This document shows positions 1 to 56,429 of a DNA stretch of 64,000 nucleotides, piece by piece; within the stretch, counting starts at the first letter, position 1; each line of letters begins with the position of its first letter. The stretch covers positions 372,001 through 436,000 of the forward strand of contig WHVD01000053.1 in NCBI GenBank assembly GCA_015178975.1, written 5' to 3'. The translations under genes and the position numbers were made by a program. The notes under the pieces were generated by a model that was not told the DNA's origin, did not search any database, and saw only the letters and a list, made by a program, of their open reading frames with translations. The DNA is from Hysterangium stoloniferum. Taxonomy: Eukaryota > Basidiomycota > Agaricomycetes > Hysterangiales > Hysterangiaceae.

Positions 1-1398
1 GACAAGGATTGTAGTTGGTCCAACCTCACTATAATGTAAAAAATCAGGATGATGAGATCTAAACTCAGCTAACTGTTCCAATCCTGATTCTGCAGTCCCT
101 CCAATAATCTTATTTCTCTTGTGACCAATTTTCTTCTCATACTGAACATGATCAACATTTAATAGAACTGGGGATATCTCTGTAACAGATTTACCTGGAC
201 CAGAAAATCCAAGAATGCCAACAGCTAATTGTAGTGAGCCCATTTTTAGATGTCCCTGAAATATTTTGTGGAGCTGAGATCATTCATTGGGAAGATGGAG
301 TTTATGAGTGGGTCATTGGTGAAGATATGTCACCATTGTGATACATAATCCCATTTTTATAATGAATATGTGTGGACAATACATTGTATGTCATATGATG
401 TAAATTCTGTCCACAGTCACAACTACATTTTAATTGCTTTTGAATACCAACAGCCCTGGTCTGTGTTATGACCGGAAATCCCGCCGGACTCCAGGCACTA
501 ACTTATACACACCTGCGCCCTATACGCACCTATTATCAGTTCACCAGAATTCCCACCGGACTCTGTACATCAGACTCGTCTATGTTCGTCTTTGTTACGT
601 TGTGTTTCAGTCACTGGAATACTCACTGGACTCCGTCCCTGTCTATATCTGACCTCATCCCACGTGTCAGTCACTGGACCCCGCTCAGTAAAACCCGTCA
701 CCTCTCTAACAGAGCCCCATTCCCATTTTAGTCAAATGACCTGTCATGATTCGGACTCCACTCCCGCTCTGTTTCCCATTATGGTTTATGATTTGTCACT
801 ATTTGGACTCCGCTCCGTTCTGTCCCGTTCCTAACACCAATTTGGTGTTTACTATTCCCATTTCATGTTTTGCTCATTTCGTTTCGTCATTACTGGATTT
901 CGGTATGACATTCACTCCACGGTCTATTTAAACTGGCAGATGTTGTACATACAATCCAGTCAGAAAATTGGCTTAGATTCCCCCCAGTAATCTGATACAT
1001 TTTCTGCTCTAAACTCCTACTTGAATTACACCACTCACACTAGTCGGAGCCCACGGGCTCTGGTGCATCTATCTCTCTCACCAATCTCAACTCACGACCC
1101 ACGACCTCCAACCTACAACCTCTGACCCACAACCCCCACCCAGACTCCCTGGGATTCTCGTCTGCCCATCTGAAATTGGACAACACGATCTAGTGAGGGT
1201 GCAGCCTATAAGCTGAAGCCAAGTCCTACCAGATATCCTGCGGGTTTCTCCAGAAACCTGCCCTGTACATATCCAAACAGTCTGAGGCTGAATGACAATA
1301 TCACAGTCAGGATTTTTACAATGTATGATACCCAAACATTTACACTTTGTATGATTTCCACCATCTAAAGTTAAAGAATTTATATCATGGTGTTTATC
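1..1398 (-). mobile_element. Zinc-cluster transposase-like protein fragment, split by a solo LTR
   Basis: Read on the minus strand, the sequence either side of the solo LTR at 464-1279 encodes one protein type. Positions 1398-1280 and 463 downward give a Cys/His-rich cluster (spacing resembling C-x-C, C-x4-C, C-x-C-x-C with later His), then an aromatic stretch ending near HNGD. Further down, about 250-1, comes a block containing GFSGPGKS and EISPVLLNVDHV. From memory, this two-part arrangement (GCM/FLYWCH-like zinc cluster followed by a GxxGPGES-type block) is common in agaricomycete predicted proteins that I associate with MULE-like or related DNA transposons; that link is recollection, not something I could test. 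The fragment has in-frame stops, runs off the left edge and shows no catalytic DDE region, so it is a decayed piece. Confidence 0.45.
464..1279 (+). repeat. Solo LTR, Gypsy family A
   Basis: This 816-bp block is homologous along its length to the 819-bp LTRs of the full-length element at 5148-13237. It starts TGTTATG and ends near CCAAACA, and is flanked on both sides by the 5-bp duplication GTCTG (459-463 and 1280-1284). It contains the TATATAAA-type promoter region, the CAGTCAGAAAAT block, and the family U5 block near 1200-1230. No internal sequence is attached, so it is a solo LTR left by recombination between two LTRs. It interrupts a transposase-like fragment. Confidence 0.9.
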
Positions 1399-5147: not shown

Positions 5148-5966
5148 TGTTACAACCGGACAATCCTGCCAGACTCCAGGCACTAACCCATACGCCCACA
5201 CGCACTACAAGCACCAATTGTCTGTTTATAGGATTTCCCGCCCGGACTCCGTTATGTCAAGACTTGTTATGTTCGACCTCATTACGACACATATCAGTCA
5301 CCGGACTTCCCCCGGACTTTATCTCTGTCTATGTCTGTCTTCGTCCCACACATCAGTCACCGGACCCCGCTTAGAATCCCGTCACCACTCTAATCAAGCC
5401 CCATTCCCATTTTAGTCAAATGACCTGTCATGATTTGGACTCCGCTCCCGCTCCATTTCCTGTTATGGGTTATGCTTTGTCACGATTCGAACTCCACTCT
5501 GTTCCGTCCCATTCCTAACACCAAACTTGGTGTTTACTATTCCCGTTTTATGTTTTGTTAGTTTCGTTTCATCATTATTGGATTTGGTATGTCATGCACT
5601 CCACAGTCTATATAAACTGGCAGATGTTGTACATACAATCCAGTCAGAAAATTAGCTTAGATTCCCCCCAGTAATCTAATAACATTTTCCACTCTAAAAC
5701 CTTACTTGATTCACACAGCTCGCACTAGTCGGAGCCCACGGGCTCCAGCACATCTATCTCTCTCAACTATCTCGACTCACGACCCACGACCTCCGACTTA
5801 CGACCTACGACCCACGAACCCCACCCAGACTCCCTGGGATCCCCGTCCGCCTGTTTGAAATTGGACAACACGATCTAGCGAGGGCGCAGCCTATAAGCTG
5901 AAGCCAAGTCCTACCGGATATCCTGCAGGTTTCTCCGGAGACCCGCCCTGTGTGTGTATCCTAACA
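5148..5966 (+). repeat. 5' LTR of the Gypsy element
   Basis: 819 bp, TGTTAC to TAACA. Contains a TATA box at 5609-5616 and, 33 bp further, the AGTCAGAAAAT block that probably marks the transcript start. The U5 portion carries a block (near 5885-5930) shared with other LTR families in the window. Confidence 0.95.
5609..5616 (+). promoter_or_regulatory. TATA box of the LTR promoter
   Basis: TATATAAA in the U3 region of the 5' LTR, with equivalents in the 3' LTR and in the solo LTR copies. The probable start of the transcript, AGTCAGAAAAT, begins 33 bp downstream. Confidence 0.75.
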
Positions 5967-5968
5967 GT

Positions 5969-12418: not shown

Positions 12419-13237
12419 TGTTACGACCGGACAATCCCGCCAGACTCCGGGCACTAACCTGTACACCCCCACACGCTACAAGCACCAATTGTCTGTTTAT
12501 AGGATTTCCCGCCCGGACTCCGTTACGTCAAGACTTGTTACGTTCGACCTCATTACGACACATATCAGTCACCGGACTTCCCCCGGACTCCATCTCTGTC
12601 TATGTCCGTCTTCATCCCACGCATCAGTCACCGGACCCCACTTAGAATCCCATCACCGCTCTAATTGAGCCCCATTCCTGTTTTAGTCAAATGTCCTGTC
12701 ACGATTTGGACTCTGCTCCCGCTCCGTTTCCCATTATGGGTTATGCTTTGTCACAATTCGGACTCTGCTCCGTTCCGTCCCATTCCTAACACCAAACTTG
12801 GTGTTTACTATTCCCGTTTTATGTTTTGTTAGTTTTGTTTCATCATTACTGGATTTGGTATGTCATGCACTCCACGGTCTATATAAACTGGCAGATGTTG
12901 TACATACAATCCAGTCAGAAAATTAGCTTAGATTCCCCCCAGTAATCTAATAACATTTTCCGCTCTAAAACCTTACTTGATTTACACCGCTCGCACTAGT
13001 CGGAGCCCATGGGCTCCAGCGCATCTATCTCTCTCAACTATCTCGACTCACGACCCATGACCTCCGACTTATGACCTACGACCCACAAACCCTGCCCGGA
13101 CTCCCCGGGATCCCCGTCCGCCTGTTTGAAATTGGACAACACAATCTAGTGAGGGCACAGCCTATAAGCTGAAGCCAAGTCCTACCGGATATCCCGCGGG
13201 TTTCTCCAGAGACCCGCCCTGTGTGTGTATCCTAACA
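12419..13237 (+). repeat. 3' LTR of the Gypsy element
   Basis: 819 bp, TGTTAC to TAACA, homologous over its whole length to the 5' LTR and followed directly by the GGAGT duplication. Confidence 0.95.
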
Positions 13238-13568
13238 GGAGTCCAATGAGTGATCCACAAGACACAGAGGGTCAGGCATAGATGGGCTTGATGTCCGGGC
13301 CCTGGTGGGTTTTCCAGTCTAGCTGTAACTTGGTATAGCAAGTCAGGTGCATGTAGGATGGGGTCTGGAGCCCGGCGGGTTTTCCAGTCCTAACAGTTCC
13401 CCCAAGCCCAGGTGGAAGCATTTTCCAGCACTTCTCAAACCCTCCCCAGTCGATCCACAACAGCTTGCATCATGGTAGTATCCCCAGTGGCAGCCCACCT
13501 AGCTCCCACAGTAGTGGACCTCCCAGCTCTCATCACAGTTTTGGTGGCAGGTGCATCTCATGGCAGTC

Positions 13569-16800: not shown

Positions 16801-17587
16801 AGTGGACTGGCCACCTTTTTCACTGATGAAAGTGAGGAACCAAGTGGAATGAGTAAGGTCCAAGACCTAATGTGACAGCACAGAGTGTGATGCAAACTTA
16901 ATTATATTTGTAAAGTACACAATACCTTGCAACCAACAATACTGTACATATGTATGTATTAATATTAATATTTGACAGAACCTTCTCTGATGAAACAGTC
17001 AAGAAAATTATTTTCATTCAACAATGGTTAAAAATAGCAAGTAAAAATAATTGAAACAACCTTTATAACATATCCATGAATCCCTGTGGTACCACAGTAT
17101 GGGTATGTAGTGTGTGTTACAACCATGTCACAACCTGATGGTCCCCGATGATACCATCGTCCATCTGCGCTTCAAGTTACTGGCCAAAGTCATTGTATCA
17201 GAAACTGTCGGTAAACTGACACTGATGTATACCCTCACAGCAATCATACCCCATTTACGCCCCCTGTCAAGTTATACTCGTACCATCTGGTTATGCTTTG
17301 ATACGTCCCCTTTTACTTATGATGATCCCTTCCATGCTATGTTTCACCTATGCCCGTATATACTTGTAACCCTTGGACTATTTCCTTTTCTTGTAATCCC
17401 ACTCTCAGTTAATCGTGGCTTCCAATCTTATCGTAACCTTCCAGTTTCTAGTCAAGTCTATTTGTCAAATAGTATTTCCACTCTTCCCTTAGTTAGTAGT
17501 TTCTAGATGCCAATAACTCATATATAAACCCACTGTAAATGTAGTTACTAGGTAATCAGAATATCGGCTCAGAACACTTGTATACCT

Positions 17588-18908
17588 TGTTATGACCGTG
17601 TCACAACCTGACAGTCCCCGAGGTTATCGCTGCCTATCAACGATTCAAGTCATTGTTCAAGCCATCACATCAGAAACCGTCGGTCTCCCGATGCTGATGT
17701 ATGCTTTCACGGTGATCAAACTCCATTTACGCCCCTGTCAAAATATACTCATACTATCTGGTTAAACTCTGATACATCCCTTTTTTATTATGATGATCCG
17801 TTCTACTCTATGTTTCACATATGTCTATATATACTTGTAACCCTTGGACTATTTCCTTTTCTCGTAATCCCGCTCTCGGTTATTTCACAGCCTCTGAACT
17901 AATTGTAACCTTCCCGTTCCTAGTCAAGCTTATTTGTCAATACCGTTTTCCACTCTTCTCCTAGTTAGTATTTTTCTAGACGCCGAATACTTGTATATGA
18001 ACCTGTTGTAGTTGTAGTTACTAGGCAATCAGAATATTGACTCAGAATACCCTCTTACACCTCTAGAAGTCTCAAAACTAAGGAGGATAACCGAAAACTT
18101 TAAAAATTATTTATCCACTAAAGTATATATATTTATATTGTTTGTTGTAAAATTAATATTTAATTAATATTTAATCAACTTCAGTTGATTAGGTATCACT
18201 CTGAAGAATGCAAAAATATTAATATTTATCCTATATCTGACAAAATTTAGTCAAACAATCATCTGTAGATTATTCTTTTGGAATAAATTGCACAATGGGG
18301 ATTGGTACCCCAGATAGTTCTGGTTAACTCTCTAAACCAACTAAATTTAAATTATATGAAATATATTTGAAAGTTTGCTTGTATACAAGAGAATACATCA
18401 TAACCCAAAGATTAAGTCAGAACCCAAATAATCTTGTTTAACCCAAATGATCTAGGTTAACCCAAATAATCTTGTGTAACTATGTCATTTGTGCATATTT
18501 TAAAAGGGCATGCATATTTTAAAGATGAAATTTCAGGTAATTAAATATAAACTCATAGAATAAGTTGTCATGGCCAGAAGGAATAGACTCACTTGGAAAA
18601 TATGAGGATTATTCAGTAAAATTTTGTATATTCAATAAAGTGTGACCATCCTCCTAAGTATCCCACTATCCACCTTCATGTGCACTCACCCACTCTCGGT
18701 TCCCAACCCCATGGCCCAACACTTGATTTATCCTTTGGTTCCAATCAGTAGTTTGCCGGGAGGTACTCATTAGGACTAGTCTTCGCCCATCCGAAATTTA
18801 AGGATACCTGACGGATAATTGCAAGGGCGCAGCACATAAGCTGAAGCCAAGTCCTTCCAATCGGTCCCCATCGGCCTACCGACATTAGTCAGTTTTCAGT
18901 TCTTAACA
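17588..18908 (+). repeat. Solo LTR, family B, copy b, nested in copy a
   Basis: Starts TGTTATGACC and ends CTTAACA; about 750 bp once the 571-bp insertion at 18083-18653 is excluded. The target duplication is imperfect: TACCT precedes it, and TACCT occurs four bases past the expected right end. Confidence 0.82.
18083..18653. mobile_element. 571-bp unclassified insertion in LTR copy b
   Basis: AT-rich, no reading frame of note. Flanked by exact 5-bp duplications CTAAG (18078-18082 and 18654-18658), with short inverted ends GAGGAT and ATCCTC. The intact family B sequence (21341-22078) has a single CTAAG here, which confirms an insertion. It contains about three direct copies of a 23-25-bp unit built on AACCCAAATAATCTTG (about 18420-18480). 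The ends are not TG/CA, so it is not an ordinary LTR; the superfamily is unknown to me. Confidence 0.75.
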
Positions 18909-19290
18909 TATGTACCTCTCTCATAGTCCTGCTCTAAGTATCCCACTCCCACCTTTGCTTGCACTCACTCACTCTCAGTCTCCAACCCTCCAACCCCCAA
19001 CTATCCTTCGGTTTCCAATCGGTGACTTACCAAGAGGATTATTCGATAGGACTTAGTTTTCTGCCTGCCTGAAATTTAAGGACACCTGACAGTAACTTGC
19101 AAGGGCACAGCACATAAGCTGAAGCCAAGTCCTTCCATTCGGTCCCCATCGGTCTTCCAACATCAGTCAGTCTTCTGTTCTTAACAGTGTGCCATAGTCC
19201 ACTACTGTGTAACCATGATACCCATTTTGGAAACACTGTGGGTATACCCATGGCAAAGCCATTATGGCACTGTATTTTGATGTGCAGGTG

Positions 19291-20631
19291 TGTTACAACT
19301 GTGTCGTAACTGTGTTGCAACCATGGTCCCCGAGAATACTACTGTCTATCGATGTTCCAAGTTATTGATCAAGTCATCATTTCGGCAACCATCGGAACAC
19401 TGACACTGACATATACCTTCATGCTGATCAAACCCCATTTACACCCCTGTCAAAATATACTTGTACCATCTGGTTATGCTTTGATATGTCCCCTTTTTAT
19501 TATGATGATCTGTTTTACTCTATATTTCACATATGCCTGTATATACTTGTAGCCCATTGTTAAGTGCTGTGTCGGGAACTTATTCCGGAACTATCGGAAA
19601 GTCACCGGAAAGTTGGGAACTGTCAGATAGGGTCAGGACGTTGGCTTCAGCTTATGTGCTGCACCTCTACGCAAACACTCAAAGTCCTTAATTTCAGAGG
19701 TGAGACTTACAATGGAAGATACGGATATTCAGAGTTCCGAAGAGTTCCGAATATCGAGTATACAGAAAGATGGAAGAAGGAATAAGAAACTAAGTCAATA
19801 TCAGATCTAAGGTAAAGTACAAATTCGCAGAAACTAATATAAGTCTTCTCGTTATTGTACTACAAACTGAGACCATAATAAGACGGAAATGGAAGTATTC
19901 TTAAAATGGAAATACAATAAGACATATCAGGGAGACAATATTCCGAAACAGGAATATAATAAACAAACGAGTGAATACTTGTCAACGGAAAAATTACCAA
20001 ATGCAGAACAAGGGAAGAATGCGGAAGATACGGTAACTATGATGTTCCATAGTCGGAGATCGGGAGTCAGATATTGAAAACATCCAGGAATGGGTCGTAA
20101 CACCCGTGGACTATTCCCTTTTCTTGTAATCCCACTCTCGGCTAAATCACGGCTTCTGATCTTATTGTAACCTTCTAGTTTCTAGTCAAGTTTATTTGTC
20201 AATTGTGTTTCTGCTCTTCCCTTAGTTAGTAGTTTCTAGATGCCAACAACTCATATATAAACCCACTGTAAATGTAGTTACTAGACAATCAGAATATCGA
20301 CTTAGATAACCCTCTAATCTCCAACTCCATTATCTGTTCATGACCACCACATTCCGACTCCATCCGATTTACAATTCAACCTACATTTATGACTTCAACC
20401 TCTAATCTCCAACTCTCAGTCTCTGACTCTCCAACCCAACCCTTGACTTATCCTTCAGTTTCTGATCAGTAGTTTACCGAGAGGTTTACTCGACAGGACT
20501 AGTTTCCACCCACCCGAAATTTAAGGACACCCGATGGTAACTTGTGAGGGTGCAGCACATAAGCTGAAGCCAAGTCCTTCCATTCGGTCCCCATCGGTCT
20601 ACCGACATCCATCAGTTTTCTGTTCTTAACA
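19291..20631 (+). repeat. Solo LTR, family B, copy c
   Basis: TGTTACAACT to CTTAACA, flanked by exact AGGTG duplications (19286-19290 and 20632-20636). Interrupted by a minus-strand family C solo LTR at 19558-20102. Confidence 0.87.
19558..20102 (-). repeat. Solo LTR, family C, nested in copy c
   Basis: 545 bp from TGTTAAG to CGTAACA. Flanks CCCAT (19553-19557) and CCCGT (20103-20107) differ only by a CpG transition. Orientation is minus because the reversed U5 block (GGCTTCAGCTTATGTGCTGC, about 19643-19662) lies near the left end. Its body is unrelated by eye to families A and B. Confidence 0.8.
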
Positions 20632-20636
20632 AGGTG

Positions 20637-21335
20637 ACCATACTGGTATCTCGAATTTTTTCCCACAGAGTATTTTGAGAAAGATAACCTAAGTAAGTGC
20701 ACCAAATCTACTTTCATAAGAAAAGAACACAAATCTCCATTCTCTTTAAAAATTTTAGCAGACATGGAAACATACTGGGAACATAATGTTTTTTAAGATG
20801 CCAATTGGTCTTTCAAGATTGTAGTTTCAACCATTCCTTTTAAGTGTCACCTAGCAACTGGAAACAATGAGGGTTTTCAATGTATACCTTTTCAGTGAAG
20901 AGTTGCTTGATAGCTAGTTTCACTGCTTCTGCTGTCATAATGATGTGAATATTGGATGAAAACAAACTTTATTTGATGCTGTGATGAAACAAATGCAACA
21001 TGAATGACACGAATATGTATTACAAAGCATGTGGGTGCTGTCACCTAATGTCACCTAATGTCACCTAATGTAACATTCTTATGTCAGAGTGGGTTTATAA
21101 GGTCACCCATGGTCTGCAATTAGCATTTTCATATGAAAAGTCAAAGAAATGGGTGAACTGCCCCTAGGAAAAGGGTGTTTTCATCACCAATTCCAACAAT
21201 AGTACTCAATCAAAGAAGGTCACATGCCACAAACCTACAGCAATTTTCCTGGAACAACATGAGATGCATAATTGTTAAAGCAGGCTCATATGCACTCACA
21301 TTCTATATAATAGCTTAGTTGGACCGACTATATTT
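20637..21335. other. AT-rich target sequence between solo LTRs, unassigned
   Basis: With 16831-17109 and 19192-19285 this is the host sequence into which the family B LTRs inserted. The minus strand shows short open stretches (for example 20765-20640) but no family I recognise. A 10-bp unit (GTCACCTAAT) is repeated three times at about 21040-21070. Confidence 0.5.
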
Positions 21336-21340
21336 ATGGC

Positions 21341-22078
21341 TGTTAAGAACTGAAAACTGACTGATGTCAGTTGGCCGACAAGGACCGATCGGAAGGACTT
21401 GACTTCAGCTTATGTGCTGTGCCCTCGCAAATGTCTGTTGAGTGTCCTTAAATTTTGGGCGGGTGAAGACTAATCCTAACGAGTTCCTTTTGGCAAGATA
21501 CCAATCGGGACCGAAGGTTAAGTCGAGTGTCAGGCCAAGGGTCGGTGACTGAGAGTGGACGAGTGCACGCGGAGGCAGATGAGGGGATTCTTAGTACAAG
21601 ACTGTTAGAGGCGTAAGAGGGTATTCTGAGTCAATATTCTGATTGCCTAGTAACTACAACTACAGCGGGTTCATATATGTACAAGTATCAGGCATCTATA
21701 AAATACTAATGGGGAGAAGGGCGGAAAACAGTATTAACAATAAGCTTGACTAGGAATGGGAAGTTTATGATTAGTTCGGAGGCTGATGATAACCGAGAGT
21801 GGAATTATGGTAAAAGGAAATAGTTTGAGGGTTACAACTATATATAGACATATGTGAAACATAGGATAGAACAGATCATCATAATAAAGGGGATGTATCA
21901 AAAGTTTAACCAGATAGTACAAGTATATTTTGACGTGGGCATAAACGGAGTTTGATCACCGCGAACATACGTCAGCATCGGGGGCGATGGTTTCCAATGT
22001 GGTGACTTGAGCGATAACTTGAATCGTCAATAGGTGGCGTTAACCTCGGGGCCGAACGGCTGCAACACGGTCGTAACA
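21341..22078 (-). repeat. Solo LTR, family B, copy d, uninterrupted
   Basis: 738 bp, TGTTAAG to CGTAACA, with exact ATGGC duplications (21336-21340 and 22079-22083). This is the only family B copy without an insertion and gives the reference length. Confidence 0.9.
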
Positions 22079-22099
22079 ATGGCTTACAAAGCAGGCTGA

Positions 22100-22287
22100 T
22101 CAGGAAAGTGGGAAGATCAATAAGTATGCCGTCTATATTGTCTAGAGTCATCTAGGAGAGCTAGCTAACTCAGCTAGACACACTACTTTCGCGAGATCCC
22201 TATTTACTAGCCGGTATAAAAGCTTACTATAGATCTAGGGAGGCTAGGGAGTCTACATAATAGGTGTAGGCATTCCCAAATCCTTGA
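22100..22287 (-). repeat. MITE-like repeat, copy 1
   Basis: 188 bp with inverted ends (TCAGGAAAGTGGGAA and its diverged partner near 22269-22287), flanked by TGA on both sides. The same sequence recurs in opposite orientation at 35459-35630 and 43594-43777. No coding capacity. Confidence 0.7.
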
Positions 22288-22738
22288 TGAATTATTTCAC
22301 CGAGATCCACCGTCAGATACCATGTCTCAGATTCATATAGTAAGAGTTACTCATATTTCGTATCAGCGTTACTCATACCTCAGTCGTTTACACTCATCCG
22401 TGTCGACTGAGGTACGTTACCCATGATTATATCCCTTAGTAGTTTACTTATAGTATTATAACATTACTTGTTATAATAGTTCCTACTGTTTCCCAGCAGT
22501 TTGACTAAGAATCTTAAGACTATATTTTATAAAATTGGATGGGAAAAATATATGAAAGGAGAAATACCGAACTTGTCCAATAACGAGTAACACGATTATG
22601 TAATGCTTACTTGCCTGTGAGATTTGAAGGGGCCGATCGGCGGGGAGATTGGAGTGGCAATTGGCAATTAGCAATGCTTCTTCTATTGTTCAGCGATATA
22701 CGCACCGAAACGCCTTTACATCCCTTTCAACTTAGATC
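22288..22738 (+). promoter_or_regulatory. Upstream region of the cyanamide hydratase-like gene
   Basis: About 450 bp of AT-rich non-coding sequence before the ATG at 22739. It contains repeated GTTACTCAT-like words (22346-22395). No clear TATA box close to the start. Confidence 0.4.
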
Positions 22739-46461: not shown

Positions 46462-47496
46462 CCACGTACCAAGTATTTCGCACTCCGACAGAAGATGGCC
46501 GAAAAATGCAAGCCTCTCGCCTCGGAGATAGTTTTTCTCTGAAAGGGGAGAAAACGGTGCAAGAGACGAGGGTCACGTCTCCAATCCCACAAATGGTTCA
46601 ATTGTTACTTATTAGTGGAGCTGTCCCGCTTTGACCAATTAAATGGGGTAGCCAGGGTGCGGGTCCAATAAACCATGTCACATGTGAATATTATATAACA
46701 TATATCGAACAAGCGCTCACCAAAAATAAAAATGTGTGCTTTCTCGCAATTTAATTGGGGGGCCGGGGGCCGTATACGAAGCCGTGCTTCCGGTTCACAT
46801 GAAGCTCCACGCTGGACAGAGCCGAGATGACCACCTGACTGTCGAGTCGCCTTGCGGAATCCGTGGCGTTGCTCCTATAATGTCGCCGTGACTTTAGGCG
46901 AAAATCGCTATTAAATTAATTGATATGTGAGCGTTTGAATTAGCGATAAGTTATTCTTAAAGTAAATTAACAGGCCCCCAGTACACATATTGTGAAGAAT
47001 AGGTGGAAATTTATAGCTATTTATGCTAGTCAAATGTGTTTTTGAGGGCATTTTGAGGTGTTCATTGCAGTCGCGGCAGCCGCGACACCCTGTGCGGCAC
47101 TTTCCCATCGGGTTTCGCGCGCTTATTGAAAATAGAGTACAGTTGTTGGCCCTAAGGCCATGTTTTCGCAACAGTATGCACAAGACCTTATTGTGCTGAA
47201 TCACAGACACTGTTTGTCTCAGGTATAAATCGGAGTCTACGCTTATTCTCAGCTGAGGAACACAAACAGAGGAACAAGGAATGACCAACCGTCAACCTTC
47301 ATTCCTTCACGCCCAATCAAGACAGCATCCAGTCACCATAATGGCTTAGAGATAGCCACCTTCAATCGGATTCAACCACGTGATCATTATATCTGAAGGA
47401 AACGGAAAAAGAAGATAAAGAATTTGCCAATCATATTTGTATTTTGAATACAATTTCTTTTCTTTATAGATATTCCATTAATTCACAGTTTTTCAG
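46462..47496. other. Intergenic stretch containing a decayed copy of the arm repeat
   Basis: About 1 kb with no gene I can support. Positions 46853-46950 match part of the inverted-repeat arms described below. Confidence 0.5.
46853..46950 (+). repeat. Third, decayed copy of part of the inverted-repeat arm
   Basis: GAATCCGTGGCGTTGCTC and, 50 bp further, TATTAAATTAATTGATATGTGAG match 53077-53330 in the right arm (same orientation) with much intervening sequence deleted. Confidence 0.55.
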
Positions 47497-48563: not shown

Positions 48564-49487
48564 GTAAACATGGATGACGGTAACCTGGAGGTGGCGACAA
48601 GCCCACACATTCATGCAGTGACCACTATGGGTGCAGCACCATACGAGCGAAGGACGTTAATGGCGGCAACTATTGATGGTGCACGGTCAGAAAACCAGGG
48701 CTTACGTGTAACCTGCGAAGGGGCATATTGGCATCTTGGTAGGGATTTCTTTTATGGCGCCCACAAAGAAACTGATTGGGGGGCAGCGGATTGCCGGAAA
48801 ATGCTGACAAAAAGGCTTAATAGGAGTTAAACTGGGTATACCATGAGTCAAATACATGTACCTAATTATAATCACGACAGGTATGAAAAGGAGTAGACGA
48901 GGAAAGGGTGGCTGAAAAAGAAAATTGTACAGAGGAACGATTATTATTGGAATGTGGTAAGAAAATACCAAATGGAGGAGTACGATGCAACATGCACCGG
49001 TTTGTAGCTAGATTCAACGATAATAACCTAATGTTTGTCAAATGAATCGCCCACAAAGACATCAAAACTCACCCCGATGACTTTGTGAGCTCTGGATATG
49101 CTTGTGTTTCCGCTTCTGCGGCGACTTTGTATTCACCGGCAATGATGCAAGGCTATCGACCCGAGGGCTGGGGCTCAGCAGTGATTCATCGAAGTGACGA
49201 GCGTTTGGCGCTGGTGCGTTCGACCGTGATGCTTTCGACCATTTCAACGCTGAGTGCTAGATGTTGAACCTATCCACGCCAAGAGGGGCCGATGAACTGA
49301 ACTTCTGTAGGGAAAGTTGTGCAAGTTACTACAACGACTAGCTCATTATAACAAAGCATCACAAGTCAGAAATAATACGACGAACCTTCTCCAACTGACC
49401 CAATTGCTGCTTCATGATAAGCTGACTTGAGCGACTGTGCGGTTCTGTCAATATCCACGAATTTTGGTGGGGCGATCGATTACTCAC

Positions 49488-49660
49488 CTCGCACAGCGAA
49501 AAAATACGGTTCTGAACTCTTTCTCCACCTACCTTGCGCATGAAAAAACCATCCCGATACATCTATTCCAATTCGGTGGGCTCGATTGCCATGTTAATTG
49601 GTCATGAATATTGGCTGTACAGCGAGTTTAATGAGCGACTTGGATTGTGGCTGCTATCGG
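49488..49660 (-). pseudogene. XPG-like nuclease N-terminal fragment, left arm
   Basis: The minus strand reads SLIKLAVQ, then HRIGIDVSGWFFHA, the start of the XPG/FEN N-domain in mushroom PIN-like nucleases. It contains an in-frame stop before the HGNRAHRIGID block and a frame change before the FFRCAR-like end. No later nuclease exons are visible apart from a possible 49247-49070 tail segment. A decayed partner of 54700-54875. Confidence 0.6.
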
Positions 49661-50390
49661 GAAGTAGGGGTAAGTGAAGGGTAAGTCTCGTTGGAGCCAC
49701 TCCTAGAGCTATCTGTCAGGAAATCGCGCAAGTTGTCAACGAAACATAGAATATGAAGTGCCACAAAATACTTCCAATTCACTGCAACCATGATGGTAGC
49801 TTGGATAAACACAGCAGTTATTCGCCAAAGGTACCCAACGACTGTGCGCGGGGTGCTCTTCGTTGGCTTTTTCAGAACGGCATGTAAAGAGTTGGGGTAT
49901 TGTATAATTAAGTCCATTAAATGGGAAATGACAACGATTGTGCTTACTTGGGATTTTTGCAGGCGGCTTGTTTGATTGCGCCATCAGCAGGTGTACGACT
50001 TGCCTTGTGAGACTACGAGATTCACGGGATCTACCCGCTTAGGCCGTAATTTTTGACGAACAAAGGTACTTATTAGATCATGGATGGTGACAGAACAAAG
50101 GTTCTGGATGCAGGTGAGTCGTTGGTTGGGACCGGACACATTATATCCCATAGCTGAGGACACATCCAATGGACACTGAAGACATTTGAGATGAGGCAGT
50201 ATTGACCTGCATTGTCGGGATGGAAATGGCATCGAAATACAAGATATGGAAGTGTATATATCGTGATCAGTATTATGTGAGTTTAAAATACATTTCAACG
50301 CACAAAGATTGATTTCATTACAATTAATGCTCTCTTAAAAACACGAAATACTTTTGACATCTTTCAAGCGCTCTAGAACATCATACCGCC

Positions 50391-51030
50391 GTAATTGCAG
50401 CTCCAAGATAATCTATGATTTGCTGTCGCCTGGCGAGGACTAAAGCGTGGCCAGGGAGGGGGGGAAGACCGAGAGCTTGCGCGGTGGACAGACATGCAGC
50501 AACTAAGGATACTATTACTTGAGGCAATAGTATGAAAAACGATCGCTACTTACCAGTGAGGTCATATAAATTGTGCTTAAAAATTGGCCTATCATTGGGT
50601 AACGGAATACCTGGAGGGTACATCAAGGCTGCATTGACTGAAGATGTTGCGTTTTTGAGCCTTATTGAAAAAAGAGCTTGAAACGTGTCTTGTCTGCCTT
50701 TTGTCAGCGGGAAACACTAGAACTGAGAAGCTGGACTTACGAGTTTTGTAGTTGCTGCAACCGTTGGTCGAGTTGCTGCAACCGTTGGTCGAGTTGCTGC
50801 AACTGTTGGTCGAGTTGCTGCAACTGTTGGCCTTGTTGCTGCAACTGTTGGCCCTGTTGTTGCAACTGTTGGCCCAGTTGCTGCAATATTTGCGTCTGGA
50901 CGAGCTGCTGCTGCTGTATCTGGACGAGTTGCTGCTGAATATTAAACATAGGTAAGTTTGGGACGAGTATTAGTTCTTGTCCAGCTGCTATCAGACTTTG
51001 ACCGAGCAGTGGGATGTTTGGTTGGGCCAT
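50391..51030 (-). CDS. Small Gln-rich coiled-coil protein, left copy
   Basis: Starts MAQPNIPLLGQSLIAAGQEL at 51030. Three exons give about 172 residues: an N-terminal exon with a Gln/Leu heptad array (LQQLDQQ/LQQQGQQ units) ending LQQLQNS; a second exon LKNATSSVNAAL, YPPGIPLP, NLYDLT; a third exon AQALGLPPLPG, RRQQIIDYLGAAITAV and the stop at 50393-50391. Introns have GT-AG ends. The heptads predict a long coiled coil. The C-terminal part resembles small mushroom proteins in which a coiled coil is followed by a conserved LPP...LxxYLG segment, family name and role unknown to me. It is intact and paired with an inverted paralogue at 53698-54263. A TATA-like TTTATATA and CACGTG lie upstream. Confidence 0.7.
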
Positions 51031-51225
51031 GGGCGGCGCGAGTGGAGGAAGAGGGGGTATAGAGGGTGGAGAGGTCTGATAACGGCGTGTGGTACCGGAG
51101 TGTGGAGAGGTCTGTACGAGTGTGGAGAGGTCTGTACCGAGTGTAGAGGGGGCTGTACAGGTTTGAGGCTGCTGCTACTGTTGGGGGGGTGTGGCGGACG
51201 AGATCTGGTATATAAATGCTAGCCT

Positions 51226-51231
51226 CACGTG
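51226..51231 (-). promoter_or_regulatory. CACGTG box upstream of the left coiled-coil gene
   Basis: CACGTGA, about 196 bp before the ATG at 51030 and 15 bp from a TTTATATA box. The same box in the same context occurs at 53523-53528 before the right copy. CACGTG is a classical bHLH site. Confidence 0.45.
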
Positions 51232-51736
51232 ACTTTGTCGACATGGAAAATTCGTCAAATGAATAATTAGGAAAAAAACTAGATGCTAAAACAAAAAATT
51301 TATATCGACCTTTATTTACAGGTTCCCCTACTACCCATGGATACCTCGGAGGCGCGTTCAATGAGGAATTCGAGGGTTTAGATAATAAATGGAACATTAT
51401 CGTTATATATCACCTTATAAAACTCCAAATGCTCATATCTCAATTAATTTAATATCGATTTTAGACGACAAGTATCTTCGAACCATGTCAAAACAGTCTG
51501 GTGGTGTGGGGTTACTCGGGCTGTGGTGGCCCTTGACAAAAACGGCGACATAATCACCTAACTCTGCCAAGGTGCACCTCGTCACCGCGACCATTCTGGT
51601 ACTAGAGCAACACCACGGATTCGCAGAGTTATAGGTCGATTGTTACCATTCGCGTATGTCCTTCCAGATCTGATGGCATCAGCCGTAAAATCAAATTAGG
51701 TTGACTTCACTCCGCTGTAAGACCCCAGCTGTGAGT

Positions 51737-52336
51737 GTGGTGCATTTATTTCGTGCTTCTGAGCGGGGGCATGGGTTCCGAACGCAACTCATAGAATGTG
51801 CATGATTATTTGTTGATATGAGCTACTGTTTATGGTAGATTTGGCATTTCTCTGTTATGGAAGTACCAGATTCGGAGCAAATGGATTATTAACGATAATG
51901 TGTTTATTCCGACGTGTTTTAACATGCATACTGAAGAGCCGAGTAGAGCAATCTGGATGATTCAAGATTCGTGTCTGGACTAACAGCCTCTTTGCTGCTC
52001 CGGTGATTATCATTCTTATTTTATTTATTTAACTTTTACTTAGAGGAACGTTAGGAAATCATTGCTGGCTCGGTGGTAAGATTGTGCTACACGTTTCATA
52101 TTTGTGAACCAGCTACTTTTCTTCATAACATCTCAATGTTTTCCGCTCATATTTGGGGTACAGCACATAGGACTGTCATGGATCTATAGTTGTCGAAAAA
52201 ATGGCGTGTCATCGTAACATTACTCAGCGTTGTCTAACTGATACATGAAGAGATATGGATTTCGACTCCCTGACCATCCGACCACCTTTTCTACCCCATT
52301 ATCCACCAGTAATCCCAATATCACAAAAGGACCCAC
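51737..52336. other. Spacer of the inverted repeat, non-coding part
   Basis: 600 bp of single-copy sequence between the left arm and the spacer gene. No open frame or repeat of note. Confidence 0.5.
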
Positions 52337-52996
52337 ATGTCCTCGACTTCTCTCACGGACACAGGTGCGGGTGACCGCCTGCGTGTGTCCTCTCAACTCG
52401 TATTGAGAGCTGCTACTACACGTGTACAATTCCGTGCCGTGGGTTCAGCCATGAAGAGAGATCTCATTGCAGAATGCATCACATTGCAAAAGGATTTAAA
52501 GACCTTGTTTTTTTTCGACCGAGAGTTTGATGAGGCGCAAAAGTTTCTTTAGTGAGTGCTTGTCCTTTACTTTTTGTTTACCTCTTTCTAATTTGCTTAT
52601 CTAGTCTAATGTCACCAGGCCGTGTCATTTATCCAGACGGTATCCCTGCCTATCTAAACATGCCATGCATCAAATTCGAGTGTCTTTGCGCATTGTTGTT
52701 GCCCGGATTGCTATTTGTAGAGGTGAAGACCATCGCTAGAATAACCCGTACATTCTGCTCCGATTGCGGCTTAAATGGTAAGTCGGATGGTGCTTATATA
52801 TTTCACGCGTATACAGCGAGTCATTCTGTGGCAGCCGGTGGGTACACTTGTAATTCATAGCTACCTTCAAATATGACCAGCAATAGTATTGGGACCGCCT
52901 GGTATTCAGGCAGACTTCAACGTGCGATCGGAACCCACACTAATTTTCATTGAGTCACTGGTCCAAGTCACAGCTGGGCGCCATACAGCGAAGTGA
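52337..52996 (+). CDS. Small spliced gene in the inverted-repeat spacer, unknown family
   Basis: Three exons (52337-52551, 52605-52777, 52887-52996) with GTGAGT and GTAAGT donors and TAG acceptors keep one frame and give about 165 residues. Visible: MSSTSLTDTGAGDRL, a charged helix-like part (MKRDLIAECITLQKDLKTLF), SPGRVIYPDGIPAYLNMPC, a leucine-rich helix (CLCALLLPGLLFVEVKTIA), FCSDC (CxxC), and a last exon VLGPPGIQADFNVRSEP ending AGRHTAK. I do not recognise the family. The last exon runs into the inner edge of the right arm, and the left arm ends in the inverted copy of the same 3' end. So the inversion breakpoint lies in or next to this gene's last codons. The intact splice pattern suggests it is expressed. 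Confidence 0.5.
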
Positions 52997-53522
52997 AGTC
53001 TACCTGATTTGATTTCACGGCTGATGCCATCAGATCTGGAAGGACATACGCGAATGGTAACAATCGACCTATAACTCTGCGAATCCGTGGCGTTGCTCTA
53101 GTACCAGAATGGTCGCGGCGACTCCAGCCTCAAACACCGTGTGGTGACGAGGTGCACCTTGGGAGAGTTAGGTGATTATGTCGCCGTTTTTGTCTAGGGC
53201 CACCACTGCTGCTAGAAGCCCGCGTAACCCCACACTGACTCCACCGGACTGTTTTGACATAGTTCGAAGATACTCGTAATCTAAATTGATATTAAATTAA
53301 TTGATATATGACCATTTTGGAGTTTTGTAATCAGCAGTATGAACGAGCTGCAATGGTGTGTCCGGAAAAGGTGATATATAACGATAATGTTTCATTTATT
53401 ATCTAAACCCTCAAATTGAACGCGCCTCGGAGGTATCCATGGGTAGTAGGGGAACTTGTAAACTTTAAAGGTCTATATAATTTTTTTTGTTTTAGCGTCC
53501 AGTTTTTTTCCTAATTATTCAT

Positions 53523-53528
53523 CACGTG
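53523..53528 (+). promoter_or_regulatory. CACGTG box upstream of the right coiled-coil gene
   Basis: Counterpart of 51226-51231, 170 bp before the ATG at 53698. The neighbouring TATA-like element of the left copy is degraded here (CTTATGTA). Confidence 0.4.
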
Positions 53529-53697
53529 AGGCTAGTGCTTATGTAGATCTTGTCCGCCACACCCCCTAACCTTGCACAGACTCCCAGCCAGCCTCATACC
53601 TGTACAGACCCTCCACACTCCGGTACAGACCCATCCACACTCCGTTATCAGACCCCCTCCACCCTCTATACCCCCTCTTCCTCCACTCGCGCCACCC

Positions 53698-54263
53698 ATG
53701 GCCCAACCAAACATCCCACTGCTCGGTCAAAGTCTGATGGCAGCTGGACAAGAACTAATACTCGTCCCAAATTTACCAGTGCTTGATATTCAGCAGCAAC
53801 TTGTCCAGATACAGCAGCAGCAGCTCGTCCAGACGCAAATATTGCAGCAACTTGGCCAGCAGGTGCAGCAACTAGACCAACAGGTGCAGCAACTACAAAA
53901 CTCGTAAGTCCAGCTTCTCTGTTCTAGTGTTTCCCGCTGACAGAGGGCAGACAAAACACCTTTGAAGCTCTTTTTCCAATCAGACTCAAAAACGCAACAG
54001 CTTCAAACAATGCAGCTTTGGTGTACCCTCCCGGTGTTCCGTTACCCCCTGATAGGCCAATTTTAAAGCAAAATTTATATGACCTCACTGGTGAGTAGCG
54101 ATCGTTTTTCATACTATTGCCTCAAGTAATAGTATCCTTAGCTGCTGCATGTCAGGCCACTGCGCAAGCCCTCGGTCTTCCCCCCCTCCCTGGCCCAGCT
54201 TTACTCGTCTCCAGGCGACAGCAAATCATAGATTATCTTGGAGCTGCAGTTACGGCGTTTTGA
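53698..54263 (+). CDS. Small Gln-rich coiled-coil protein, right copy
   Basis: Starts MAQPNIPLLGQSLMAAGQEL and has three exons like the left copy: heptad array ending QLQNS with GTAAGT donor; LKNATASNNAAL, VYPPGVPLPPDRP, NLYDLT with GTGAGT donor; then AACQATAQALGLPPLPG, RRQQIIDYLGAAVTAF and the stop at 54261-54263. It has 144 residues, 28 fewer than the left copy, exactly four heptads. Both copies keep open frames and splice sites despite the decay of the neighbouring nuclease fragments, which suggests selection on this gene. Family and role unknown to me. Confidence 0.7.
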
Positions 54264-54699
54264 TGTTCTAGAGTGCTTTCAAAATGTTAAAAGTATATCG
54301 TGTTTTTAAGAGGGCATTAATTGTAATAAAATCAATGTTGTGCGTTGAAATGTATTTTACACTCAAATAATTCGGATGACGATATATATACTTCCATATA
54401 TTGTATTTCGATGCCAGTTCCATCCCGACAATGCAGGTCAATACTGCCTCATCTCAAATGTCTTCAGTGTTTTGGATGTGTCCTCAGCTATGAGATATAA
54501 TGTGTCTGGTCCCCCTTCTCGTCAACCAACGACTTACCTACATTAAGAACCATTATTTTGTCACCACCCATGATCTATGTGATAAGTACCTTGTGCTGTT
54601 TCGTATTCTATGTTTCATCGAACAACTTACGCGATTTCCTGACAGATAGCTCTAGGAGTGGCTCCAACGAGACTTACCCTTCACTTACCGCCTACTTCC

Positions 54700-54875
54700 C
54701 AATAGCAACCACAATCCAAGTCGCTCACTAAACTCGCTGTACAGCCAAGGTTCATGACCAATTACCACGGCAATCGAGCCCACCGAATTGGAATTGATGC
54801 ATCTGTGTGGTTTTTTCATGGTGGTGGAGAAAGAGGAAATCCAGGGTTCAGAACCTTGTTTTTTCGCTGTGCGAG
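54700..54875 (+). pseudogene. XPG-like nuclease N-terminal fragment, right arm
   Basis: Reads SKSLTKLAVQ, MTNYHGN, RAHRIGIDASVWFFHGGGERG, NPGFRTLFFRCAR followed by a GTGAGT donor at 54876. This is the conserved first part of the XPG/FEN-like PIN nucleases common in mushrooms, including the metal-site Asp of GIDAS. Better preserved than the left copy, but a stop lies just upstream and no further catalytic exons (the I-region) follow, so it is a truncated remnant. Confidence 0.65.
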
Positions 54876-55355
54876 GTGAGTGATCGATCGCCCCACCAAA
54901 ATCGGTGGATATTGACACAACCGGATAGTCGCTCAAGTCAGCTTATCATGAGGCAGCAATGGATCAGTTGGAGAAGGTTCGTCGTATTTCTGACTAGTGA
55001 TGCTTTGTTATAATGAGCTAGTCGTTGTAGTCACTTGCACAACTTTCCCTACAGAAGTTCAGTTCATCGGCCCCTTGTTTTTTTATTCCCGAGTTGAAAC
55101 ATGATTAGAGTATACGGTCGGCCCCTCTTAGCGTGGATAGGTTCAACATCTAGCACTCAGCGTTGAAATGGTCGAAAGCATCACGGTCGAACGCACCAGC
55201 CCCAAACGCTCGTCACTTCGATGAACCACTGCTGAACCCCGGCGCTCGGGTCGATAGCCTTGCATCATTGCCGGTGAATACGAAGTTGTCCCAGAAGCGG
55301 AAAGGCAAGCATATCCAGAGCTCACAAGTCATCTGAGTGAATTTTTATATCTTTC

Positions 55356-56429
55356 TGAGTGTGACAACTGGCATGATTAATTTGATCAACGGATCGACGT
55401 TAGGTTATCATCGTACATATCCCAGACACCTCGCATCCCTGCCACATTGCCTCTAAATCGGCACCCTGTCATCTATTACGTCTTATAATCACCTCTAGTC
55501 CGTGTCTGTGCGACTTGCGCAATCTATGGCATAGAAGCAATGCACCTGGAAATGGGAATAACATGCCACCGTTACAGACTGACCTTACAACGCCTCTTCT
55601 TGCCTCGCCGCGGTCTTAGCCCGTCTTGAATCGCAGCCTAGTCCTTCGCTAGTCAAAGGAGTAGCGTCCGTGCGATCATAGAACGTACACGGCGACCGTC
55701 TGACTCGCAACACCATCCGGACTTGAGCTCTGACATTTCCAATTCGACAATGAGACTCTCTCCAAATATACTCCTACACTTGAATTTAGGATCACCGCTG
55801 GCTGTGAACCACGCAGCGACATCAGAAAGCAGTGAAAGGGGACTCTTAAAGGCTGGAATGCAACTACCAACCACAACCTATCTGATGCAAAAGCAAAGTA
55901 GAAGCGCCACTCCGGGCCAGGTCTGAGAAGGTCAGGATCGGGAACTAGCACATCCATTCCGGAGAGGTCTGGGGACTTGTTGTCCATAGCTTCGTCCCCG
56001 CATGTGAATGCGCGTTTGTCAAAACATAAAATCAGCTCCTTGCCCTCACTTGAGACTGAAACTGTAATTACCTCGCGCCCCTCGACTCGTCACCATCCCT
56101 AGTAGCCTCTTTGTCGCCTGGATCAAAGGCGTCGCGTCATCAGGTTTGATCAGGATTGCCAGGGACTAGCATGCTGTATTTTGAATGAATGAGTCCTTCG
56201 AATTCATGGAGCGCTAGTGGTCCTTATTTGGTGATAAAAGACCGCGTGCCAAAACGGATGCAGCATTCGGTGATGTGCAGGTAAAGATTACGTGGAACCA
56301 GATGGGGTATCTTGATTGACTTACATGCGCGTGGGGTTAATATTGACAATTGCCCCTGCATGCAGATGTCAGAATTGGATCATTTCTCGAGTCAACTTGT
56401 CATGAAACATTGGTATGATTTTGCCATTG
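55356..56429. other. Unassigned stretch with a coding-like segment on the minus strand
   Basis: About 1.07 kb. On the minus strand, 55987-55653 has two overlapping frames with protein-like composition (MDNKSPDLSGMDVLVPDPDL at the start; SDVAAWFTASGDPKFKC further on), possibly joined by a short intron. Family unknown. The rest is non-coding. Confidence 0.35.

What the first reader, a model, noticed from the sequence alone, without database searches (positions are those of the whole stretch)
49055..55355. Inverted duplication with two preserved coiled-coil genes around a small unknown gene
Two arms of about 2.4-2.7 kb in opposite orientation surround a 1.2-kb spacer. The coiled-coil gene keeps open frames and splice sites in both arms, while the XPG-like nuclease fragments beside it have decayed. 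This contrast suggests selection on the small gene. The inner breakpoint falls in the 3' end of the spacer gene, so the ancestral order was spacer gene, coiled-coil gene, XPG-like N-terminus. A three-gene set of this kind, with a nuclease partner lost, could be a small fungal gene module that has not been described; that part is inference.
Basis: partly seen in the sequence, partly recalled or inferred. Interest (0 to 1): 0.7.

Follow-up and report, generated by a model that had tools for sequence, protein, structure and literature searches.

The report
Inverted gene copies in transposon debris
A small coiled-coil gene of a fungus lies twice, in opposite directions, around the remains of a mobile element; the supposed three-gene module is not one, but the small gene looks real and its relatives in the same genome also sit in inverted copies.

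Summary
The inverted duplication is real. The 'spacer gene' is not a gene: 51787-53077 is the decayed 3' part of a repeated element whose 26-base end occurs 27 times in this genome, two of them in the window (reversed control 0). Both copies of the duplicated stretch end inside that element and meet at 51786|51787 without a spacer. Contig C541 has the adjoining sequence without the element, joined at 53078. The 'XPG' piece is only weakly recognisable and belongs to a dispersed mosaic repeat (30 matches on 14 contigs). In the loci read, none of the three pieces goes with either of the others as a set, so a three-gene module is not supported in this genome.

The coiled-coil gene is probably real: three exons open in both arms, and an intact paralog on C509 with the same exon plan, 51% identical. 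Evidence for selection is mixed: no excess of silent change (P 0.15-0.39), no frame-breaking indel (P 0.01), mild replacements (P 0.002-0.008). New: both other loci of the family also hold short-centred inverted copies. Expression and sister species could not be tested.

The parts
49052..51786 (-). Arm 1 of the inverted duplication (coiled-coil gene on the minus strand); similarity to L024 reaches 49013
   Evidence: self-BLAST; L024; inner end
52923..55357 (+). Arm 2 (coiled-coil gene on the plus strand); similarity to L024 reaches 55454
   Evidence: the partner of 51786 at 52923 is read by eye from the alignment
51626..51786 (-). Element 3' pieces at the inner end of arm 1 (equivalent to L009:5237-5276 and L009:5785-5881)
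51787..53077 (+). The 'spacer gene': 3' part of the repeated element with internal deletions, ending ...GACCTATAACTC; orientation is that of the element end
53078..53265 (-). RNase-H-like fragment beside the element in arm 2 (arm 1: about 51480-51625); continuous and free of the element on C541
   Evidence: the RNase H name rests on a weak Pfam match (E 0.016, below cut-off) and on recall
50381..51030 (-). Coiled-coil gene, arm 1: exons 51030-50741, 50693-50554, 50502-50381; 183 aa
53698..54263 (+). Coiled-coil gene, arm 2: exons 53698-53903, 53951-54090, 54142-54263; 155 aa
54712..54876 (+). GEN1/XPG-like N-terminal exon fragment, arm 2
   Evidence: E 0.019 and 0.023; copies in L021, L022, L023, L025 and others
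49487..49647 (-). The same fragment, decayed, in arm 1
   Evidence: alignment, coordinates counted by eye
55040..56064 (+). Fragment of another gene (open copy in L024, contig C12); the first part is also in arm 1 (49013-49330)

Best explanation
A small coiled-coil gene stands among mobile-element debris: an RNase-H-like fragment on its 5' side into which a repeated element inserted, and on its 3' side a mosaic repeat with pieces of a GEN1/XPG-like gene and of another gene. The stretch from inside the element to that other gene's fragment was then copied in inverted orientation, and the two copies joined inside the element at 51786|51787 (the usual ways are template switching at a stalled fork or repair of a broken end; general knowledge, not shown here). 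The right-hand copy is probably the older, because its matches to the element and to the other gene run on past the arm limits. Both copies of the small gene kept open frames afterwards. What the protein does is not shown; I infer a small protein that pairs through its Q/L-rich coil and has a short helical C-terminal part. Shown: arms, junction, element, element-free site, paralogs. Inferred: order of events, polarity, expression, protein function.
For: Self-alignment. Element copies and its fixed end, 27 matches against 0 in the reversed control. Element on both sides of 51786|51787 (score 50 against at most 32 in 200 shuffles). Element-free site on C541. Mosaic repeat elsewhere without the gene. 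Gene: same three exons in two arms and in the C509 paralog; no frame-breaking indel where 4.6 were expected (P 0.010); mild replacements (P 0.002-0.008).
Against: 29 replacement to 14 silent changes do not differ from neutral (P 0.15, 0.28, 0.39), and the lack of stops is not significant (P 0.12-0.19); YN00 even gives dN above dS. The tests were not corrected for their number. The class and the 5' end of the element were not found. No transcript data.
Confidence: 0.85

Rival explanations
1. An undescribed three-gene module (spacer gene, coiled-coil gene, XPG-like nuclease) that lost its nuclease.
For: The three pieces are adjacent here, and the coiled-coil gene is better kept than its neighbours.
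Against: The spacer feature and the XPG-like piece each occur at many places without the gene, and the gene occurs without them on C509 and C541 in the stretches read.
Confidence: 0.03
2. Hairpin RNA: inverted copies of this gene family are transcribed through and give small RNAs that act on the family, as described for some plant miRNA genes.
For: All three loci with recognisable copies hold inverted copies. A transcript across the first C509 centre would fold back (z -42.8). One C509 fragment is 88% like the intact gene in opposite orientation, spacer 1.4 kb. Argonaute (Piwi) and RdRP matches exist.
Against: Any inverted repeat folds; the C509 hairpin itself is only about 69% like the intact gene. 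In the window the genes diverge, so ordinary transcripts would not form the hairpin. Dicer was not searched. No small RNA data.
Confidence: 0.08
3. Both gene copies are decaying neutrally and simply have not yet been hit by a stop or frameshift.
For: Replacement share as under neutrality and no significant lack of stops.
Against: No frame-breaking indel (P 0.010), mild replacements (P 0.002-0.008), intact diverged paralog.
Confidence: 0.25
4. Assembly error: a fold-back read gives a false inverted repeat.
For: Inverted repeats are a known assembly error (general knowledge); short-centred ones occur elsewhere in this genome.
Against: The arms differ by about 10% substitutions and many indels, with a long stretch in one arm only.
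Confidence: 0.02

Closest known systems
Inverted segmental duplication with a breakpoint in a transposable element
   Same: Inverted arms, junction inside an element copy, decayed fragments around a gene.
   Different: Nothing that sets it apart was found; the mechanism of joining is not shown.
Plant miRNA genes born by inverted duplication of their target genes (for example miR163; start of the abstract of PMC5388894 seen in the listing)
   Same: Inverted copies of a gene family near an intact member.
   Different: No RNA evidence, a fungus, divergent gene order in the window, and the C509 hairpin is only about 69% like the intact gene.
Fungal Helitrons with captured genes (passages of PMC4289320)
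   Same: The mosaic repeat with gene fragments stands beside a Helitron Rep frame in L026.
   Different: That frame hits only L026 among the 20 loci compared, and not the window.

Membership tests
Conserved functional gene module | The same genes occur together at independent loci of this genome | tested here: not met
   12 element copies and 8 mosaic copies read without the gene; 2 other gene loci read without either
Conserved functional gene module | The same order in other species | not testable with these tools
   the genome has no relatives here
Transposable element (spacer feature) | Many dispersed copies with one fixed end and different flanks | tested here: met
   27 ends; 10 different flanks among the 11 copies shown (L018 and L019 share one)
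Transposable element (spacer feature) | Recognisable transposase and both ends (class of element) | tested here: inconclusive
   no Pfam family for the frames searched; 5' end not found; of the 27 ends only the window pair stands in the arrangement of terminal inverted repeats, which the duplication explains
GEN1/XPG nuclease (fragment in the arms) | XPG_N domain | tested here: inconclusive
   PDB matches E 0.019 and 0.023; no Pfam match; not found by the XPG_N genome search
Coiled-coil gene family of this genome | Same three-exon plan and aligned protein | tested here: met
   83% and 51% identity to arm 2
Hairpin RNA locus | Dicer-sized small RNAs from the arms | not testable with these tools
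   no RNA data held

The most novel reading that the evidence does not exclude
A small fungal coiled-coil gene family that again and again makes inverted copies of itself: in this genome all three loci with recognisable copies carry inverted pairs, three of them short-centred, and these are kept because they make hairpin RNA that controls the family.
Probability: 0.08. Interest if true: 0.6.

Novelty: new member of a known kind. Interest (0 to 1): 0.28.

Why it matters
It removes a false gene module and shows how mobile-element debris around a real small gene can look like one. What is left of interest is that all three loci of one gene family hold inverted copies; small RNA sequencing and sister genomes would tell whether that is chance, a fragile sequence, or a silencing device.

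Tried and rejected
Module reading: rejected by the copies elsewhere in the genome. Helitron capture of the XPG-like mosaic: a Helitron Rep frame stands beside it in L026 (PF14214 has 151 matches in the genome, a lower bound), but that frame hit only L026 among the 20 loci compared and not the window, so I did not adopt it. RIP-like mutation as the cause of divergence: CpG-type transitions are 33 of 219 mismatches, so not the main cause. Terminal inverted repeats of the element: among 27 ends only the window pair stands in that arrangement. Structure prediction was not run: the spliced protein is not given letter for letter by the DNA, and I did not test the rule. Pfam for the coiled-coil protein: only weak coiled-coil matches, those shown all under the curated cut-offs (25 of 99 rows shown for arm 1), and for the part behind the coil nothing better than E 0.094; PDB profile search best E 0.046. 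Literature: one paper, none and ten papers of which eight were listed; none of the titles listed concerns such a module or this gene family. That says only what those searches gave. A first gene model used another acceptor for intron 1; the verdict on silent and replacement change was the same. The three pieces searched for transposase families included no full frame of the element.

Full report
What is there. The inverted duplication is real. BLAST pairs 50063-51734 with 54592-52968 (78.8% with gaps) and 49052-49773 with 55357-54584 (83.7%). Without gaps, non-coding columns differ at 167 of 1643 and coding columns at 43 of 468. Similarity to an open gene on contig C12 (L024) reaches 49013 on the left and 55454 on the right, with a further block at 55503-56064.

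The spacer is a transposable-element remnant. Window 51787-53077 matches a repeated element at many places of the same genome. I read 12 copies (L009-L020). Six of the other eleven match L009 in a single stretch of 3.1-6.0 kb at 94.8-98.7%; the rest match in pieces or over less, at 78-97%. Over its main block the window copy is 81-86% identical to 11 of the 12; L020 is 87.9% over 265 bases only. Most copies end with GACCTATAACTC; the 11 copies whose end was shown have 10 different flanks, L018 and L019 sharing one. The 26-base end occurs 27 times in the genome with up to two mismatches, the reversed control not at all, and two of the 27 are the window arms. Frames on the opposite strand of longer copies look like a transposase to me, from memory only; Pfam gives nothing convincing. 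The 5' end was not found, so the class of the element is open.

The junction. Read on the minus strand, arm 1 holds the element's end and then, up to 51786, an earlier piece of it (51786-51747 against L009:5237-5276, score 50; 200 shuffled queries reach 32 at most). From 51787 the plus strand is the element again (L017:2930). So the two copies meet inside the element, and the 'spacer gene' is the part of the right-hand element that has no partner on the left.

Element-free site. Contig C541 carries the sequence that in the window begins at 53078, and there it continues without the element. This places the element's end to the base. The invaded sequence may be the RNase H part of a LINE: weak Pfam match, E 0.016, below the cut-off, for the longer C541 frame; no Pfam match for shorter pieces and no PDB support.

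The XPG-like piece. The fragment 54712-54876 has two PDB matches up to E 10, both called 'Nuclease-like protein' (5cnq, 6grb), at E 0.019 and 0.023; that these are GEN1 is recalled. Pfam gives none, and a genome search with XPG_N finds five matches at four other contigs but not this piece. The piece belongs to a mosaic repeat: window 49055-50075 gives 30 matches on 14 contigs, the window's own included. Eight such loci were read (L021-L028) and none matches the coiled-coil gene. The outermost part of the arms resembles a different gene, open in L024.

The coiled-coil gene. Both arms hold a three-exon gene with an open frame, 183 aa in arm 1 and 155 aa in arm 2, which lacks 28 codons of the Q/L-rich coil. 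Protein searches of the genome find relatives at C509 and C541; with the C509 protein, further matches outside the family are at E 0.25 or worse. C509 has one intact copy with the same three exons, 51% identical to arm 2. The 6.0 kb read at C509 and the 8.0 kb at C541 show no match to the element or to the mosaic repeat.

Selection. In 155 codons there are 29 replacement and 14 silent changes. Simulated neutral change gives about the same share (P 0.15, 0.28, 0.39 for transition bias 1, 2.4, 4), and the lack of stops is not significant (P 0.12-0.19). NG86 gives dN 0.087 and dS 0.138, YN00 0.117 and 0.074, so the ratio is not stable. Against that, 16 of 24 non-coding indels would break a frame, which predicts 4.6 in coding sequence, and none was seen (P 0.010). 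The replacements are milder than neutral ones (mean BLOSUM62 0.38 against -0.39 to -0.48, P 0.002-0.008). Four tests, not corrected. I take the gene as probably coding, with weak constraint since the duplication.

Inverted copies at the other loci. C509 holds two short-centred inverted pairs of gene fragments (arms about 350 bases, 81% and 72%) and C541 one (arms about 116 bases, 74%). In the other 242.5 kb that I held (20 loci and the window) there are two such pairs with arms of 100 bases or more, in L019 and L025, and five with shorter arms. Three in 14.0 kb against two in 242.5 kb gives P about 0.0002 by my own Poisson arithmetic, but the background was chosen for its repeats and the foreground by homology, so this is a lead only. 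A transcript across the first C509 centre would fold back (z -42.8), as any inverted repeat does. The genome has Piwi and RdRP matches; Dicer was not searched. The C509 hairpin is about 69% like the intact gene, though one C509 fragment in opposite orientation is 88% like it. For fungal hairpin loci I saw passages of PMC9757828, which says that fungal miRNA-like loci are often associated with protein-coding genes and that natural long hairpins need study.

Verdict. This is an ordinary kind of event around a small and probably real gene. The one thing that may deserve more is the inverted copies at all three loci of the family.

Noticed in passing
L041:1264-4781 (C509:160263-163780): Cluster of the coiled-coil gene: one intact copy and several fragments, with two short-centred inverted pairs and one with a 1.4 kb spacer.
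   Followed up: partly
L042:918-1149 (C541:239417-239648): Two 5' fragments of the coiled-coil gene tail to tail, arms about 116 bases, 74% identical.
   Followed up: partly
L019 centre 3678.5; L025 centre 8830.5: Short-centred inverted repeats not related to this gene, arms 187 and 171 bases; such repeats may be common in this genome.
   Followed up: no
L026:3743-4998 (C272): Helitron Rep frame beside a copy of the XPG-like mosaic repeat.
   Followed up: partly
window 46809-46872: Short stretch similar (80.6%) to the RNase-H-like sequence of C541.
   Followed up: no
window 17113-22289: Cluster of direct and inverted repeats, 69-89% identical.
   Followed up: no
window 464-1281, 5148-5968, 12419-13238: Three copies of a direct repeat of about 820 bases, 83-93% identical.
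   Followed up: no
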